In this document: positions 1-38,756 of the stretch, piece after piece | How positions within the stretch are numbered: the stretch's first letter is position 1 | Layout of the letters: every line of letters begins with the position of its first letter | From: a virus | Strand: one strand, 5' to 3' | DNA length: 38,756 nucleotides | IMG/VR virus record: IMGVR_UViG_3300036857_000360 | Span: 1-38,756 of that record | The notes under the pieces: model-generated | What the model saw: only the letters and a program-made list of their open reading frames with translations | What the model was told of the DNA's origin: nothing | Database searches by the model: none | Position numbers and translations under genes: made by a program

Positions 1-39
1 GATCGAGAAGTCGAGGGACAAGGTCACGACCGCCATGGA
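1..39. repeat. Left copy of terminal overlap
   Basis: These 39 bases match positions 38718-38756 except at position 15 (G here, C at 38732). The tape-measure frame that leaves the right end with two bases of a codon is completed exactly in phase at position 40. This fits an assembly overlap of a circular or circularly permuted genome of about 38717 bp. The single mismatch (Arg versus Thr codon) could be a population variant or a read error. Confidence 0.85.
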
Positions 40-1891
40 GAAGATGGCGGACGCGTCGATCACCGGCGCCCAGGCCCGCTTCGACCGGGCCTGGAACACC
101 TGGTCCGGGTCGATCTCCTACGCCTTCCAGCAGGTGCAAGGAGCGCAGCAGACCGCGGCCGAGAAGTCACTGGCCGGGTTCGAGGACCGGCAGCAGCAGG
201 CGGAGCGGGTGTTCGAGAAGACCTGGGCTGACCGCAAGGCCGCCGCCCAGCGGGCGGAGGCGGACGCGGACTCGAAGGCGGAGAAGGCCCGGGCGCAGGC
301 GGAGTCGAAGGCGGTCGCCGCCGCCGAGACACGGGCCAAGCAGGTGTTCGACGCCCGCTGGAACGCGCAGAAGGCGGCGCTGGAGAAGGAGGCGGCCGGC
401 GAGCGGCGGATCCTGGACGCGCAGCAGCAGATGCGCTCGACGGCGTTCCAGAACGCCCTCGACAGCCTGCAGAAGTACCTGCAGTCCTCCCAGGCGACCG
501 CGCAAGGGGCGCAGACACGGCTGGCCGCTTTGATGGGCCAGTTCGGTGTCTCGCTCTCCCAGGTCGGGGCGCTGCTCGGCCAGAAGTTCGCGGACGGGGT
601 CAGGACGATGGGCACGGCGGTCGCGAGCGCCGGGGCGGAGCTGGGACAGAAGACCGCCGCCGCGGCCGCGCAGACGAAGGTCACCGACCAGCTGGCGGCG
701 CAGATCACCGCCGGCACGCAGAAAACGATCGTGGCCGCCCAGCAGATGGCCCAGCGGACGATCGACGCCGGCCGCACCGTCCTCGACGGCGCCTTCGGCA
801 ACTGGAGCTCGGCCCTGTCGTACGCGTTCGACAAGGTGCAGGACGCCCAGCAGACCCGCTCCGAGAAGCTGATCGCCGACCTGCAGGCCCGCAACGAGAA
901 GCTGAAGTCGTCGTTCAACGACACCCTGACCACCGCGGAGAAGCAGCTGCAGCAGCTCGAGGCCGCCCGCGCCGAGGCCGAGCGGGCCGGCGCCCTCCAG
1001 TCGGCGCAGGCCGCGGTCGCGAAGGCGCAGCAGGACATGGCCGCCGGCGCCGAGGGCGCCAGCGAGGAGCTCCTGGCGGCGCAGAAGCAGCTGGCGGACG
1101 CGCAGTACGCGATCCAGGTCGCCGCCCTGCAGAAGCAGGCCGAGGCCGAGAAGGCTGCCCGGGCCCAGAAGCAGGCGGCGCAGGAGACCGCCTACCAGAA
1201 CGAGCTGACCCGGCTGCAAGGGCAGGCCACGAAGGAACGGGCCGCGCTCGACGCCCGCCAGCAGATGCAGCAGCAGTCGTTCAACAACGGCCTCGCCAAC
1301 CTGCAGAAGTACCTCGACTCCGCGCAAGCCACAACCGAGGGCGCCCGCAAGCGGCTGACCACGTTCATGAACAAGTTCGGGATCGACTTCCAGACGCTCG
1401 GGTCGCTCCTCGGTGAGGGCTTCGAGACCGGCATCAAGGGCATGACCCAGCGTGTCTCGAACGCGGCCGGTGATCTGAGGAAGATCGCCCTCGACGCGGC
1501 CGCTGACATCGAGGAGATCGAGCAGGCGCTGCTGGAAGCGTTGAAGAAGTTGCGCGGCCAGAAGGCCGCGGCCGGCGGTGGGGGCGGCGGGGCGAAGGCC
1601 GCCGCCCCCCAGTCGGCGTTCATGCCCGCCGTCGCCGCCACCAGCACCGCCGCAGCCGGGATGCTGGGTGCCCCCACCGCCTACGGGGCAGGTGGCGGCG
1701 GCGTGGTCGGCTACCGGGCCCCCGTCACACCGAAGATCCAGCTGCAGCCACCGGCCGGGTTCCAGCAGGTCGAGCCGCAGTTCGAGGTGAAAGTCTTCAT
1801 CGGCGACCAGGAGCTGAAAGGCATGGTCCGCACGGAGATCCGGGGGGCGAACCGGGAAACCGTGCGCGTCGTCCGCGGAGGCCGAGCCTAA
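2..1891 (+). CDS. Tape measure protein, C-terminal part
   Basis: The frame is open from the left edge and continues the gene that begins at 36343; joined through the terminal overlap the protein would be about 1421 residues. The tape measure sets tail length and fills the tail lumen before DNA ejection. This part is Ala/Gln/Lys-rich, strongly helical and probably coiled coil. It contains a diverged internal duplication: a first unit around bases 80-610 and a second around 782-1444. Both carry an aromatic segment of the type W-S-x-(S/A)-(L/I)-S-Y-A-F followed by a shared L-Q-K-Y-L helix and a G-x-L-L-G motif. A Gly/Ala-rich linker near 1570-1700 precedes a short C-terminal domain. The ATG at 35 is internal and is not the real start. 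The stop overlaps the next gene's start region, showing tight coupling. Confidence 0.85.
   Translation: MEKSRDKVTTAMEKMADASITGAQARFDRAWNTWSGSISYAFQQVQGAQQTAAEKSLAGFEDRQQQAERVFEKTWADRKAAAQRAEADADSKAEKARAQAESKAVAAAETRAKQVFDARWNAQKAALEKEAAGERRILDAQQQMRSTAFQNALDSLQKYLQSSQATAQGAQTRLAALMGQFGVSLSQVGALLGQKFADGVRTMGTAVASAGAELGQKTAAAAAQTKVTDQLAAQITAGTQKTIVAAQQMAQRTIDAGRTVLDGAFGNWSSALSYAFDKVQDAQQTRSEKLIADLQARNEKLKSSFNDTLTTAEKQLQQLEAARAEAERAGALQSAQAAVAKAQQDMAAGAEGASEELLAAQKQLADAQYAIQVAALQKQAEAEKAARAQKQAAQETAYQNELTRLQGQATKERAALDARQQMQQQSFNNGLANLQKYLDSAQATTEGARKRLTTFMNKFGIDFQTLGSLLGEGFETGIKGMTQRVSNAAGDLRKIALDAAADIEEIEQALLEALKKLRGQKAAAGGGGGGAKAAAPQSAFMPAVAATSTAAAGMLGAPTAYGAGGGGVVGYRAPVTPKIQLQPPAGFQQVEPQFEVKVFIGDQELKGMVRTEIRGANRETVRVVRGGRA
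80..1444 (+). repeat. Internal duplication in tape measure
   Basis: Two diverged protein-level repeats lie about 700 bases apart, roughly 80-610 and 782-1444. Each starts with an aromatic S-Y-A-F segment followed by Q-D/G-A-Q-Q, continues through charged coiled coil, and ends with S-L-Q-K-Y-L-like and G-A/S-L-L-G motifs. The second unit is longer by a Glu/Ala/Gln-rich insertion. Duplication of helical units is a plausible way to lengthen a tape measure. Confidence 0.7.
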
Positions 1892-14116: not shown

Positions 14117-14302
14117 ACCTTCCGGGGGGCGTGGGCGACCTGGCCGTAACGGGCCCTGCGCTGTGAACAGCAGACAGGCATTCCCCGCCGCAGCGGGCTG
14201 TCTCGCGTGAACCCGTGCGCCCCCCGAGAGGCCGACCCTTGCTGAACACCCACAGACTGTCGGGGTCGTGTGATGGGTCCGCTATAGAGTCTGTACGTTC
14301 AA

Positions 14303-14377
14303 TGGCCCCGGCGGGGATCGGACCCGCGACCTCCCGCTTAGCAAGCGGGTGCTCTATCCGGACTGAGCTACGGGGCC
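14303..14377 (-). tRNA. tRNA with anticodon GCU on a class I, Arg-like body
   Basis: Read leftward, a full cloverleaf is visible: a 7-bp acceptor stem (GGCCCCG/CGGGGCC), D arm GCTC/GAGC, anticodon stem CCCGC/GCGGG with loop TTGCTAA, a five-base variable loop AGGTC, T stem GCGGG/CCCGC and discriminator A. The anticodon is GCU (Ser AGC/AGU), but the short variable loop lacks the long arm that SerRS needs. The body resembles actinobacterial tRNA-Arg(CCU). It retains A20, C35, U36 and A73, the known ArgRS identity set. The T loop is TCCGATC, with C in place of the usual T55. CCA is not encoded. The flanks extend the acceptor pairing by seven of eight bases. Confidence 0.85.
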
Positions 14378-14393: not shown

Positions 14394-14440
14394 GGGAGCG
14401 GCCTCCCTTCACAAGAGCCGCTCCCTTATCCGGCCTTTTT
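14394..14440 (+). terminator. Rightward intrinsic-type terminator
   Basis: A perfect 9-bp stem GGGAGCGGC (14394-14402) and GCCGCTCCC (14417-14425) with a 14-base loop is followed 10 bases later by five T residues at 14436-14440. It would stop rightward transcription from the Cro-like operon before it enters the leftward gene at 14442-14897. It lacks a T-run for the leftward direction. Confidence 0.55.
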
Positions 14441-14441
14441 C

Positions 14442-14897
14442 TCACGTATCGAACGGGATCGTTGCCCCGCCGCTCAGCTCACTTTGGGCACGGTCCACCA
14501 CCTCCTCTCCATGGTTCGCGGGGAAGACGTACCTGCCGGGTCCGAGACGCCGGCCTTCCCCGTTGATCTTGCAAAGGCGCTTTGCAGCCGCCTCCACACC
14601 ATTGGCGGTCGTGAACCAACCACGCCGCTGCATTTCCTCGCGAAGCTCGGTCAGAGTCCAGACACCAGGGCGCTCACGAACGATCAGACGCAGCGCCTCC
14701 CGCCCACGTGGATCGGACCTCTTCGCATGGCCGTTGCCGTTCGTCTGCGACTGGCTGCCAGATGAACTCACGAACTCCAACAGCTCGTTGAGCCCTTCCT
14801 CGCCCAGCTCCTCAGCGAACTCAACCATCCTCTTCAGTCGAGCTGCCCGCCGGTCAGCCTCCTCGGCTTCCCGCCGTAGCTCGGTCAGAGAACTCAT
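14442..14897 (-). CDS. Leftward winged-helix-like DNA-binding protein
   Basis: 151 residues reading left from ATG 14897, preceded on that strand by GAGGAGG. The N-terminal half is coiled coil (L-T-E-L-R-R-E-A-E-E-A-D-R-R-A-A-R-L-K-R). After a Ser/Gln/Asn linker, the C-terminal half has R-P-G-V-W-T-L-T-E-L-R-E-E-M-Q-R-R-G-W-F and L-G-P-G-R-Y-V-F, the shape of a small winged helix ending in a basic wing. It lies between the tRNA and the integrase, in lysogeny orientation with the repressor. It may be a transcription regulator expressed in lysogens. The family was not identified. Confidence 0.65.
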   Translation of the reverse strand: MSSLTELRREAEEADRRAARLKRMVEFAEELGEEGLNELLEFVSSSGSQSQTNGNGHAKRSDPRGREALRLIVRERPGVWTLTELREEMQRRGWFTTANGVEAAAKRLCKINGEGRRLGPGRYVFPANHGEEVVDRAQSELSGGATIPFDT

Positions 14898-14963: not shown

Positions 14964-14986
14964 TGTTCGGTCCCCTGGACCCGACA
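14964..14986. promoter_or_regulatory. Dyad between divergent genes
   Basis: TGTTCGGTCC-CCT-GGACCCGACA is an imperfect 10-bp inverted repeat (8 of 10 matched) between the leftward gene at 14897 and the rightward gene at 15039. Its position suits an operator controlling both. No clear promoter hexamers were found nearby. Confidence 0.35.
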
Positions 14987-15038
14987 GTCAGGGGCGCGAT
15001 GCCGGGTCGCCGTTCCAGACCGAGACGGTCGAAGGGCA

Positions 15039-15260
15039 GTGTTCGTGACCTGGCTGGCGATCCTGATCATCACCCTGGTCTGCGTGTCGTTCTCCGCCGG
15101 GTTCGTGCTCGGCGCAGCCCTGGCGGCGGTCGGTCTCCGCGCCCGCAGGCCCCGGCCGCCCCAGGAAGGGAACTGGTCGGTCCCGACCGAGAACCCCGGC
15201 GCGACGCTTTACCACTTCGTGGGGCCGGTTGTCCCGTTCGACCAGGAGGACGCCGAGTGA
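15039..15260 (+). CDS. Small membrane protein before excisionase
   Basis: 73 residues from GTG, with GAAGGG as ribosome binding site. The first ~35 residues are one long hydrophobic span (T-W-L-A-I-L-I-I-T-L-V-C-V-S-F-S-A-G-F-V), then a basic R-A-R-R-P-R-P stop-transfer and a polar tail predicted to be cytoplasmic. It overlaps the next start by GTGA, so it shares a transcript with the excisionase-like gene and the integrase. Membrane proteins encoded with integrases are sometimes exclusion factors; here that is a guess. Confidence 0.55.
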   Translation: MFVTWLAILIITLVCVSFSAGFVLGAALAAVGLRARRPRPPQEGNWSVPTENPGATLYHFVGPVVPFDQEDAE

Positions 15261-15508
15261 GGGAGGTCGTCCCGGTCGAGGCGTACGTGGACGGGCGCAG
15301 GCTGGCCGGTTTGATGGGCGTGTCGGTGGCGACGATCAAACGCTGGACGGCGGAGGGGATGCCGTCGGAGACGTGGGGAATGACTCGTACCCGCCGATAT
15401 CTGCCCTCTCGGGCGATGGCCTGGGCACGTGCCCGGGGCGGGGCTAAGATGGGCGAGAGCCGGGATAGCGAAAGCACCGCGCCCGGGCAACAACAACCGA
15501 AGGAGTAG
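15257..15508 (+). CDS. Excisionase-like HTH protein
   Basis: 83 residues from GTG. Residues ~10-55 resemble a MerR/HTH-17 domain: Y-V-D-G-R-R-L-A-G-L-M-G-V-S-V-A-T-I-K-R-W-T-A-E-G-M-P with R-R-Y-L-P-S-R-A after the wing. The tail is Gln/Ser-rich. It ends five bases before the integrase ATG and carries its AGGAG ribosome binding site. Small HTH-17 proteins beside a tyrosine integrase typically act as recombination directionality factors, so xis function is inferred from context. Confidence 0.65.
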   Translation: MREVVPVEAYVDGRRLAGLMGVSVATIKRWTAEGMPSETWGMTRTRRYLPSRAMAWARARGGAKMGESRDSESTAPGQQQPKE

Positions 15509-15513
15509 CTTCG

Positions 15514-16608
15514 ATGCCTAGTCAGCTTCCCTCTGGCCGTTGGCGGACGCGTGTTCGCCATCCCCGTACCGGCCGGCACCTGTCCGCCAGGACGGTGATC
15601 GGCGGCCCCGACACCTATCCCGACCGCGTCTCGGCCGCCGAGGCTGAGACGCGGGCCCGTGACCTGCTGCGCCGCAACGCCCGCGCCGGCGTGACCGTCC
15701 GCGAGTTCTGGAACGACTGGACAACCGACCCGCTCTGGGCCCGTCCCGCGATGTCGACGAACCTGCACAACGCCGAACGCACCCGCGGGTTCGTGCAGGC
15801 GTACGGTGACCTGCCGATCCGGGCGATCGACGACGAGCACGTGGCGGCCTGGCTGAAAGGCGGCCGGAACATCGGCACCGTCACGACGCTGAAGACGTTC
15901 TTCAACGATGCCGCCAGCGTCCAGGCAGGTCGGCTCGTCGAGCGGAACCCGTTCGCGAAGCTCAAGCTCAGGCAGAGCCGGGGCCGGCGGGACACGCAGC
16001 CGCCGACGCAGCCGGAGATCTCCGGGTTCGTTCGCCTCGCCGATGAGCTGACCCCACCGTCGTTCGGTGCCTACCTCGACGTCGCCGTCCACGAAGGGAT
16101 GCGTCCCGGCGAGCTCGACGCTCTGCGTTGGGACAGGATCGACTTCCAGGCCGGGACGATCCTCGTCGATCAGCAGTGGTGCGCGAAGGTCGCGGAGTTC
16201 ACGCTCCCCAAGCACGGGGTCATCCGCGAGATTGCTCTTACCGACCCGGCCAGGAAACGGCTCCTGTCTCTCGCGAGGGAGACGGAGTTCGTGTTCACGA
16301 CCTTGCGCGGCTCGCACTACCGGCCGTCCTCACGGGCGCATCACTGGAACCGGGTGCGTTGCACCGCAGGTCTCGGCCAGGTCGACCTGTACACCGCTAC
16401 CCGGCACTTCTTCGGCTGGTACGCCTGGAACATCCTCGAGCTCGACCCGCGTGACATCGCCCTCCACTTCGGCCACCAGGACGGCGGCGAGCTTGTGCGG
16501 AAGCTGTACGGACACGCCGACGCCGCTTTGGCCCGGGAGCGTGTCCGGGAGGCGTTCCGGCAGGCCCCACCGGCGCCCGTGCCGATCCGGGCGGCGGCGG
16601 TTTCGTGA
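15514..16608 (+). CDS. int: Tyrosine-recombinase integrase
   Basis: 364 residues, ATG after AGGAG at 15501-15505. The N-terminal part has an arm-type and SAM-like DNA-binding region (T-V-R-E-F-W-N-D-W ... L-P-I-R-A-I-D-D-E-H-V-A-A-W-L). The catalytic domain shows the first Arg in H-E-G-M-R-P-G-E-L, a Lys in the following beta region, T-R-H-F-F in place of the usual H-x-L-R-H (so the first His is replaced and Arg-His retained), L-H-F-G-H-Q and the nucleophile Tyr in R-K-L-Y-G-H-A-D. It should integrate the phage at a host attB. The stop overlaps a GTG of an uncertain frame running over the attP-like region. Confidence 0.9.
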   Translation: MPSQLPSGRWRTRVRHPRTGRHLSARTVIGGPDTYPDRVSAAEAETRARDLLRRNARAGVTVREFWNDWTTDPLWARPAMSTNLHNAERTRGFVQAYGDLPIRAIDDEHVAAWLKGGRNIGTVTTLKTFFNDAASVQAGRLVERNPFAKLKLRQSRGRRDTQPPTQPEISGFVRLADELTPPSFGAYLDVAVHEGMRPGELDALRWDRIDFQAGTILVDQQWCAKVAEFTLPKHGVIREIALTDPARKRLLSLARETEFVFTTLRGSHYRPSSRAHHWNRVRCTAGLGQVDLYTATRHFFGWYAWNILELDPRDIALHFGHQDGGELVRKLYGHADAALARERVREAFRQAPPAPVPIRAAAVS

Positions 16609-36343: not shown

Positions 36344-38756
36344 TGGCCGGCGGAAGTATCGGCACGGCGTTCGTCGACGTCGTCCTCGACCCGTCGAAGG
36401 CGAAGACCGAGCTCTCCGGCCTGAGCTCGATGATGACCTCGTCGCTGGGCGGGGCCGGGCAGGCGATCGAGGGGATCGCGACCAAGCTGGGGCCGGCCGG
36501 CCTGATCGCCGGGGCGGTTGCCGGCACCGCCGTCGTCGTCGGCAAGCAGCTCTACAACATCGGCGCCGAGTTCGACGCCATGTCGGACACGATCCAGACG
36601 AAGACCGGCGCCACGGGGAAGCAGCTCGACTCGTTCGTCGAGTCAGCGAAGAACGTCGGCAAGGAAGTACCCGACAGCTTCGAGACCGTCGGGGAGGCAG
36701 TCGGCGGCCTGGCCAAACGCACCGGCCTGACCGGCAAGCCCCTCGAGCAAATGTCGAAGCAGATGCTCGACCTGTCCCGGATCACCGGCACCGACCTGTC
36801 GAAGAACATCGAGTCGGCAACCCGGGTGATCGGCGACGCCGGCCTGAAAGGCACCGAGGCCGCCAAGGGCCTGGACGAGATCTTCCGGGCCTCCCAGGCC
36901 ACCGGCACCGAGTTCTCACGTCTCGCTGATCTAACGACGAAGTTCGGCGGGCCGATGCGCCAGCTCGGGTTCTCGTTCGAGGAAGAGGTCGCCCTGCTCG
37001 GGAAGTTCGAGGCGCAGGGCGTGAACACCGAGCTGGTGATGGGCTCGATGCGGATCGCGCTGGGGAAACTGTCGAAGGCCTCCGGCGACACGGGCAAGGC
37101 GCAGGACAAGGTCTCCAAGGCGCAGGCCGCCTACCAGAAGGCGATCAAGGACTCCGGCAAGGGCTCACAGGAGGCCGCGGTCGCGTTCGGGAAGCTGAAG
37201 TCGGCCCAGGAGGACCTGGCGTTCGGGAAGGCGGCCAAGGACGCCCCCGAGGCGCTGCGCCTGTACATGCAGCGGATCAAGGACGCGAAGACCGCGTCGG
37301 AGGCGACGGCGATCGCGATCAAGCTCTTCGGCGCCCGGGCCGGGCCGGACATGGCCGCCGCCATCCGCGAGGGCCGCTTCGAGGTCGACAACCTGGTCAA
37401 GACGATCAAGGACGGCAAGCAGACGATCACCGGCACCGCCGACGCGACCGCCGACGCGGCCGAGAAGTGGGCGACCTTCGGCAACCGGGTCAAGGTCGCC
37501 CTCGAACCCCTCGGCACGGCGGTCTTCCAGGGGATGGGGCAGCTGGCCGACATGCTCAACAACGACCTCGGCCCGGCCCTCGACCAGATCGGGCCGACGC
37601 TGAGCAGCCTGAAACCCGTCGTGGACGCGCTCGGCCCGGCACTGCTGCTGCCGTTCAAGCAGTTCGCCGCCGGCTTCAAGGTCGAGATGGCGACCGTGCA
37701 GGGGGTCATCAGCGTCGTCGGCGACCTCTTGCGCGGCGACTTCTCCAAGGCCTGGCAGGACGCCTCCGCAACCATGGGCAAGGTCGCCTCCGCGGTCGGC
37801 GGGTACATGAAAGACCTGCTGAACGCTGTCACCGGCGGGAACGCGCAGGCCGTGATCGACGGGGCGAAGAAGATCGGCAGCGGCATCTACGACGGGATCG
37901 TGAACGCGGTCAAGGGCGTCGGCAGCGCGATCACGGGAGCGATGCGCTCCGTGACGGGGGCGATCACCGGGGCGGCGACGACGGTCGCGGCGGGGGCGAA
38001 GAACATCGGCACGGCGATCGTGAACGGGATCGTGACCGGGATCCGCACGGCGACCCGGGCCGTCACGACCGGGGTCAGCGCGCTGCGGGGGATCGTCGAG
38101 CAGGCCGCCTCCGCGGCCGGCCAGTGGCTCCTGAACGCCGGCAAGGCGGTCGTCACCGGACTGGCCGCCGGGATCAAGGCGAACTACAACGCCGCCCGCG
38201 GCGTCGTCTCCGCGATCAAGGGCGTGATCACCGGCGCCGCCGGCTGGGCGACCAGTGTGCTCAGCGCCGCCGGGGCCGCGGTCGTGAACGGGTTCGTCGC
38301 CGGGATCAAGGGCGCCTACGGGGCCGTGACGTCCGCCGTCTCCGCGATCAAGGGCGTGATCACCGGCGCCGCCGGCTGGGCCGCGAGCGTGCTCACCTCG
38401 GCCGGGTCGGCGGTCATCAACGGGTTCGTCGCCGGTATGCGGTCCGCGTTCGGCGCGGTCAGCGGCGCCGTCGGCTCCCTGGCCGGGATCGTGCAGGGAG
38501 CGGTCGGGAACGCCGCCTCCTGGCTCTACTCCGCGGGGCGGAACGCGGTGCAGGGATTCATCAACGGCGTCAAGAGCCTGGCCGGCAGCGCCGCCTCCGC
38601 CGTGGCCGGGATCGGCAAGGGCGCCGTCAGCGGCGTCAAGAGCTTCCTCGGGATCCACTCCCCGTCGAAGGTCATGTTCGAGATCGGGCAGGACACGGTG
38701 CAGGGGTTCGTCGACGGGATCGAGAAGTCGACGGACAAGGTCACGACCGCCATGGA
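36343..38756 (+). CDS. Tape measure protein, N-terminal part
   Basis: Runs from ATG 36343 (TAATG with the previous stop) off the right edge and continues at the left end after the 39-base overlap. The N-terminal region has G-T-A-F-V-D-V-V-L-D-P-S-K and membrane-like segments (L-I-A-G-A-V-A-G-T-A-V-V-V-G), then the PhageMin-tail-type core with T-G-A-T-G-K-Q-L-D-S-F-V. From ~500 the sequence is Gly/Ala/Val-rich with repeated N-G-F-V-A-G-I/M units, and ends F-L-G-I-H-S-P-S-K-V-M-F-E-I-G, a frequent tape-measure motif. It sets tail length and is ejected with the DNA. Confidence 0.9.
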   Translation, partial: MAGGSIGTAFVDVVLDPSKAKTELSGLSSMMTSSLGGAGQAIEGIATKLGPAGLIAGAVAGTAVVVGKQLYNIGAEFDAMSDTIQTKTGATGKQLDSFVESAKNVGKEVPDSFETVGEAVGGLAKRTGLTGKPLEQMSKQMLDLSRITGTDLSKNIESATRVIGDAGLKGTEAAKGLDEIFRASQATGTEFSRLADLTTKFGGPMRQLGFSFEEEVALLGKFEAQGVNTELVMGSMRIALGKLSKASGDTGKAQDKVSKAQAAYQKAIKDSGKGSQEAAVAFGKLKSAQEDLAFGKAAKDAPEALRLYMQRIKDAKTASEATAIAIKLFGARAGPDMAAAIREGRFEVDNLVKTIKDGKQTITGTADATADAAEKWATFGNRVKVALEPLGTAVFQGMGQLADMLNNDLGPALDQIGPTLSSLKPVVDALGPALLLPFKQFAAGFKVEMATVQGVISVVGDLLRGDFSKAWQDASATMGKVASAVGGYMKDLLNAVTGGNAQAVIDGAKKIGSGIYDGIVNAVKGVGSAITGAMRSVTGAITGAATTVAAGAKNIGTAIVNGIVTGIRTATRAVTTGVSALRGIVEQAASAAGQWLLNAGKAVVTGLAAGIKANYNAARGVVSAIKGVITGAAGWATSVLSAAGAAVVNGFVAGIKGAYGAVTSAVSAIKGVITGAAGWAASVLTSAGSAVINGFVAGMRSAFGAVSGAVGSLAGIVQGAVGNAASWLYSAGRNAVQGFINGVKSLAGSAASAVAGIGKGAVSGVKSFLGIHSPSKVMFEIGQDTVQGFVDGIEKSTDKVTTAM
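38205..38381 (+). repeat. Exact 45-base direct repeat in tape measure
   Basis: Bases 38205-38249 and 38337-38381 are identical and lie 132 bases (44 codons) apart. They encode the segment A-I-K-G-V-I-T-G-A-A-G-W in each of two tandem protein units. The perfect match in a GC-rich gene suggests a recent duplication or ongoing recombination. Confidence 0.8.
38718..38756. repeat. Right copy of terminal overlap
   Basis: Matches positions 1-39 with one difference (C at 38732 versus G at 15). See the left copy. Removing one copy joins the two tape-measure halves in frame. Confidence 0.85.

What the first reader, a model, noticed from the sequence alone, without database searches (positions are those of the whole stretch)
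14303..14377. tRNA with an Arg-type body but a Ser-codon anticodon (GCU)
The cloverleaf is intact and the anticodon loop TTGCTAA gives GCU, which reads Ser codons AGC/AGU. Yet the five-base variable loop rules out a class II Ser tRNA. The body resembles tRNA-Arg(CCU). It keeps A20, C35, U36 and a purine at 73, the identity elements known for E. coli ArgRS; only base 34 differs. If ArgRS charges it, Arg would be inserted at AGC/AGU codons, a possible missense-recoding tRNA. The T loop (C at position 55) and the flanks that extend the acceptor stem are also odd. A host-derived, decaying attachment-site copy is the plain alternative.
Basis: partly seen in the sequence, partly recalled or inferred. 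Interest (0 to 1): 0.75.

Follow-up and report, generated by a model that had tools for sequence, protein, structure and literature searches.

The report
Arg-like phage tRNA with serine anticodon
A soil-bacterium phage carries an arginine-type transfer RNA whose anticodon reads serine codons, and it sits just behind a small DNA-binding-type protein gene in an arrangement (protein gene, hairpin, odd tRNA) that recurs beside jumping genes in bacteria, so it looks like part of an undescribed mobile cassette rather than a stray tRNA copy.

Summary
In detail: 14377-14303 (minus strand) is an intact class I tRNA with anticodon GCU, an Arg-type body, A20 and an abnormal C55. The phage uses AGC freely (28% of its Ser codons). 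The acceptor stem also continues into leader and trailer (8 of 9 positions pair; at most 6 of 9 in 66 normal tRNAs).

Following the gene upstream gave the main result. Sixty-four bases upstream ends an unnamed coiled-coil + winged-helix protein gene (14897-14442, minus), with a strong hairpin between. Homologues found by protein sequence alone in Thermoleophilia genomes have the same order: protein gene, hairpin, then a divergent tRNA-like gene on the same strand (4 of 5 testable loci; 0 of 11 control wHTH genes). The anticodon differs each time (CUG, CCU, UAG, UUA), and three copies neighbour IS1- or IS1595-type transposases. Separately, a bacterial contig holds a second GCU + C55 class I tRNA (84% identical, compensatory stem changes), next to an IS1595 transposase.

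Best reading: the RNA half of a mobile accessory cassette, a tRNA mimic more than a decoder. The mechanism is inferred, and the family is small.

The parts
14303..14377 (-). class I tRNA, Arg-type body, anticodon GCU, C55 in T loop
14296..14385 (-). leader and trailer that pair beyond the acceptor stem (15-nt arms, 93% complementary)
14394..14425 (-). hairpin GGGAGCGGC-N14-GCCGCTCCC between the protein gene and the tRNA; no T run after it
   Evidence: no promoter or terminator consensus there
14442..14897 (-). ORF of 151 aa: long N-terminal helix (predicted coiled coil) and C-terminal winged helix; no named family
   Evidence: homologues; model (mean pLDDT 69.5); no family above cut-off
15514..16608 (+). 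tyrosine integrase; shows a temperate phage and places the cassette in the lysogeny region
   Evidence: PF00589; relatives
15113..15505 (+). probable excisionase / MerR-like HTH protein

Best explanation
The tRNA is the RNA half of a small mobile accessory cassette: a coiled-coil + winged-helix protein gene, a hairpin, then a tRNA-like RNA on the same strand. In this phage the cassette sits on the minus strand, against most neighbouring genes, beside the integrase, like a lysogeny-expressed accessory gene. I infer that protein and RNA are made from one transcript, because the 64 bases between them hold the hairpin and no recognisable promoter. I infer that the RNA acts mainly as a tRNA mimic (partner or target of the winged-helix protein, or decoy for a tRNA-binding or tRNA-cutting host factor) and not as an ordinary decoder. 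Reasons: across the family the anticodon changes every time and the D/T-arm contacts are often broken, while protein gene, hairpin and tRNA-like fold stay together. Shown: the tRNA, the hairpin, the protein homology and the recurring order. Inferred: co-transcription, the decoy or partner role, any benefit to the phage.
For: Homologues of the window ORF were found by protein sequence alone, blind to tRNA (E 1e-11, 1e-6, 3e-5; profile adds L097, E 1e-5, and L098, E 3e-4). L091, L092, L093 and L097 all have a hairpin and then a same-strand tRNA-like gene: Gln-CUG, CCU, Leu-UAG, UUA. ARAGORN calls L091 and L093 at default strictness with 0/100 shuffles; L097 at 95% and L092 at 85% with about 1-2/100 shuffles. 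L098 has the hairpin only. Controls: 0 of 11 other wHTH ORFs (L098 counted among them) have a same-strand tRNA within 300 nt. Window and L091 share the same leader/trailer pairing pattern, 8 of 9, against at most 6 in 66 controls. Mobile context: IS1-like transposase right after the tRNA-like gene in L099 and L100, IS1595 transposase near L101.
Against: Few members, all from one bacterial class except the window. The window and L012 tRNAs are near-canonical, while the other family tRNAs are degenerate, so they may not do the same job. L012 has a tRNA and a hairpin but no wHTH gene. In L093 the open frame runs through the hairpin into the tRNA-like gene. In L043 a phage wHTH gene also precedes a GCU tRNA, but its five relatives have none, so such neighbours can arise by accident. 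No expression data. The structural search found no significant match.
Confidence: 0.45

Rival explanations
1. A missense tRNA: ArgRS charges it and Arg is inserted at AGC/AGU Ser codons, as tRNA-ProX inserts Pro at Ala, Asn or Thr codons in Streptomyces.
For: Arg-type body, A20, C35, U36 and A73 kept; no long variable arm, so SerRS is unlikely; GCU kept in L012 with compensatory stem changes; hybrid-identity tRNAs with a matched synthetase are known in actinomycetes (PMC11415595).
Against: The phage uses AGC/AGU freely; C55 and a stem continued into the flanks may impair maturation and decoding; no partner synthetase seen near the gene (only selected ORFs were profiled); related cassettes carry unrelated anticodons.
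Confidence: 0.2
2. A decaying copy of a host tRNA-Arg gene at or near the attachment site, with no function.
For: It lies 1.1 kb from the integrase; C55 and a changed anticodon fit relaxed selection; L041 is a decayed Arg-like tRNA with C55 next to a transposase.
Against: All stems are intact; GCU and C55 recur in L012 with compensatory changes; no block longer than 16 nt shared with any fetched tRNA locus; integrase relatives L002-L004 have no tRNA nearby.
Confidence: 0.15
3. tRNA-dependent lysogeny: the phage destroys a host tRNA gene on integration and supplies a replacement.
For: Temperate phage with a tyrosine integrase and one tRNA close by, as in PMC10865867.
Against: The replacement must match the lost isotype; a class I body with a Ser anticodon matches neither Ser nor Arg. 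The cassette also occurs in bacteria without an integrase.
Confidence: 0.06
4. An ordinary phage tRNA that happens to follow an unrelated small gene.
For: Phages often carry lone tRNAs; the L043 case shows accidental neighbours occur.
Against: Four of five testable homologues of the neighbouring protein show the same order, against 0 of 11 controls.
Confidence: 0.12

Closest known systems
tRNA-ProX of Streptomyces/Kitasatospora (PMC11415595)
   Same: Body of one amino acid with the anticodon of another, rare positions changed, found in soil actinobacteria.
   Different: Arg/Ser instead of Pro/Ala, Asn or Thr; no partner synthetase seen; in a phage; follows a winged-helix gene and a hairpin; charging untested.
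Phage tRNAs that evade anticodon nucleases and other tRNA-targeting defences (PMC10264068; PMC11555353)
   Same: Phage-borne tRNA with a changed anticodon loop; a decoy or evasion role is conceivable.
   Different: Those keep matching isotype and anticodon; here the anticodon itself no longer fits the body.
tRNA-dependent lysogeny (PMC10865867)
   Same: Temperate actinobacterial phages with a tyrosine integrase and a tRNA gene near it.
   Different: Those tRNAs replace an isotype-matched host tRNA; this one cannot, as far as its sequence shows.
IS1595/IS1-type elements with passenger genes (own knowledge)
   Same: Bacterial copies of the cassette lie directly beside such transposases.
   Different: No tRNA-like passenger was found described in the papers searched; the phage copy has no transposase.

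Membership tests
canonical tRNA (RF00005) | cloverleaf scoring above the family threshold | tested here: met
   67.5 bits against 29
canonical tRNA (RF00005) | U55 in the T loop | tested here: not met
   C55; all 38 tRNAs of G187 have U55
tRNA-Ser (class II) | long variable arm | tested here: not met
   5-nt variable loop; the genuine G187 tRNA-Ser-GCU has a long arm
tRNA-Arg | body most similar to tRNA-Arg, A20, C35, purine 73 | tested here: met
   narrower margin; identity elements from own knowledge of E. coli ArgRS
tRNA-Arg | Arg anticodon | tested here: not met
   GCU
mistranslating tRNA (tRNA-ProX kind) | charged by the synthetase of its body and used on the ribosome | not testable with these tools
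   needs aminoacylation and proteomics
mistranslating tRNA (tRNA-ProX kind) | co-encoded special synthetase | tested here: inconclusive
   none apparent in the ORF list; only selected ORFs were searched against families
attachment-site tRNA | long exact block shared with a host tRNA gene | tested here: inconclusive
   longest 16 nt in fetched loci, but the host is unknown
tRNA-dependent lysogeny | phage tRNA isotype equals the disrupted host tRNA | not tested
   attB unknown; body and anticodon disagree
wHTH-hairpin-tRNA cassette (proposed here) | homologous coiled-coil/wHTH ORF, hairpin, same-strand tRNA-like gene | tested here: met
   window plus L091, L092, L093, L097; L098 lacks the tRNA

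The most novel reading that the evidence does not exclude
An undescribed mobile two-part system, carried by temperate phages and by IS1/IS1595-type elements, that pairs a coiled-coil winged-helix protein with a divergent tRNA mimic of freely changing anticodon; in this phage the mimic is an Arg-type tRNA with a Ser anticodon.
Probability: 0.35. Interest if true: 0.8.

Novelty: new variant of a known kind. Interest (0 to 1): 0.62.

Why it matters
If the cassette is real, tRNA-like RNAs have a non-decoding (or deliberately misdecoding) job in mobile elements, tied to a specific protein, and many low-scoring 'pseudo-tRNAs' in bacterial genomes and phages would deserve a second look. If the recoding reading is right, it would be a phage-borne Arg-for-Ser missense tRNA. 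Either way it gives one small locus on which to test why phages carry tRNAs that do not fit the code.

Tried and rejected
The integrase as a guide to homologous attachment sites: relatives L002-L004 have no tRNA nearby. Searches of annotated phages and plasmids with the 151-aa protein and L091: no match. Viral scans with the protein or its alignments: none. The L043 phage wHTH gene next to a GCU tRNA looked like a second phage case, but five relatives have no tRNA, so it was dropped. L049 was a chance pattern match. The idea that IS1-like elements as a rule carry the tRNA was rejected: most other copies have other neighbours. Generic wHTH proteins in the phylum do not precede same-strand tRNAs. 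L137 is a further homologue, but its contig ends just behind the gene, so it cannot be tested. Inverted repeats around the window cassette (14250-14264 / 14980-14994) may be chance; no equivalents in the other loci. The PDB fold search gave nothing significant.

Full report
Observation. The window is a whole IMG/VR virus record of 38,756 bases, a temperate siphophage-type genome (integrase, terminase, portal, capsid) of 68.8% G+C. The nearest integrase relatives lie in Solirubrobacter soli and a soil actinobacterial MAG, which suggests a thermoleophilian host; the host itself is not known. ARAGORN and Rfam both find one tRNA, on the minus strand at 14377-14303, with anticodon GCU, a 5-nt variable loop and 67.5 bits. 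The sequence shows A20, C35, U36 and A73, and C at position 55 of the T loop. Body comparisons place it with tRNA-Arg: the best hits over 299 Thermoleophilia genomes are nearly all tRNA-Arg. In one complete tRNA set the margin over Lys is small.

A second, related tRNA. The best hit of all, L012 (G187:C135:723-796), is also a class I tRNA with GCU and the same T loop with C55, 84% identical, with the same acceptor stem, about 54 nt upstream of an IS1595 transposase start codon. Its anticodon stem (CCGGC/GCCGG against CCCGC/GCGGG) and T stem differ from the window's by compensatory pairs. G187 also has its own class II tRNA-Ser-GCU and several tRNA-Arg genes, all with U55. A pattern scan of IMG/VR gave seven further class I GCU tRNAs, two of them with C55 (L043, L045); 397 Actinomycetota genomes gave none. 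In six class I GCU tRNAs 96% of cells pair and 11 of 21 pairs change on both sides, more than in any of 500 shuffles. The D-arm, anticodon and T-loop letters were fixed by the search pattern and are not evidence; the acceptor, anticodon and T stems were free.

The cassette. Sixty-four bases upstream of the tRNA ends an ORF of 151 aa on the same strand (14897-14442). A model shows a long N-terminal helix and a winged-helix domain (single sequence, mean pLDDT 69.5). No Pfam, PHROGs, NCBIfam or PADLOC family covers it. A blind tblastn search of 299 genomes found three homologues, and a profile two more. In L091, L092, L093 and L097 the ORF is followed by a strong hairpin and a same-strand tRNA-like gene. 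ARAGORN finds those of L091 (Gln-CUG) and L093 (Leu-UAG) at default strictness, L097 (UUA) at 95% and L092 (CCU) at 85%, where shuffled sequence gives a call in about 0-2 of 100 trials. L098, the weakest homologue, has a hairpin but no tRNA. Eleven other wHTH ORFs (L098 among them) have no same-strand tRNA within 300 nt. L137, a later homologue, stops at a contig end. The tRNA-like genes are often degenerate: L091 lacks G18G19 and has G55; L092 and L097 have much reduced D arms. In L093 the open frame runs on through the hairpin into the tRNA-like gene.

Extended stem. In the window and in L091 the leader and trailer continue the acceptor stem with the same pattern, 8 of 9 positions with the mismatch at the fourth. 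In 66 ordinary tRNAs of the same class the maximum is 6 of 9. Other members do not share this. Such a stem should hinder normal 5' and 3' maturation (inference).

Mobile context. Right behind the tRNA-like gene of L099 and L100 lies an IS1-like transposase; in L101 an IS1595 transposase follows on the other strand. L113 has a tRNA-like Ile-UAU gene behind a hairpin, with a HARE-HTH-like ORF fragment upstream and an IS1-like transposase downstream. Most other IS1-like copies carry other neighbours, so the cassette is one passenger among several.

Function. Recoding of AGC/AGU as Arg is possible on identity elements, but the phage uses these codons freely (139 of 448 Ser codons), and the related cassettes carry unrelated anticodons. 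An attachment-site copy is unlikely on present data: no shared block longer than 16 nt, intact stems, recurrence of GCU + C55; it stays open because the host is unknown. tRNA-dependent lysogeny (PMC10865867) needs an isotype match that is missing. The simplest account of the whole family is a tRNA mimic made together with the winged-helix protein, as an accessory module of phages and transposons. That the RNA is a decoy or partner is inference, and I give the full account 0.45.

Known relatives. Closest in concept are tRNA-ProX (PMC11415595) and phage tRNAs altered in the anticodon loop (PMC10264068, PMC11555353). None has this protein-hairpin-tRNA order. The literature searched is open-access only, and the searches were few.

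Noticed in passing
L046:5867-5941 and L048:1130-1203: Two AT-rich phages carry a near-identical class I GCU tRNA, in L046 with nine other tRNAs; again a Ser anticodon on a class I body, with U20.
   Followed up: no
L044:4797-4870: Class I GCU tRNA directly upstream of a serine recombinase gene.
   Followed up: no
L041:1498-1572: Decayed Arg-like tRNA with C55 and a 6-nt anticodon loop, right behind a transposase, with its own promoter- and terminator-like flanks.
   Followed up: partly
L113:861-947: tRNA-like Ile(UAU) gene that Rfam scores as tRNA-Sec (44 bits, below cut-off), behind a hairpin, near an IS1-like transposase.
   Followed up: partly
L045:6356-6431: Class I GCU tRNA with C55 and no G18G19, inside the structural gene cluster of a phage contig.
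   Followed up: no
L100:4446-6181: DNA methylase fused to an Mrr-type nuclease domain, and a small GGLKGG/KAA-repeat protein, upstream of the cassette; a similar small protein lies in L108.
   Followed up: no
window 14250-14264 and 14980-14994: 15-nt inverted repeat (87%) that brackets the protein-hairpin-tRNA cassette; could be a mobile-unit end or chance.
   Followed up: partly
window 1-60 and 38700-38756: Both ends lie in similar tape-measure repeats without an exact terminal repeat; the record may be a circular genome cut inside a repeat.
   Followed up: no
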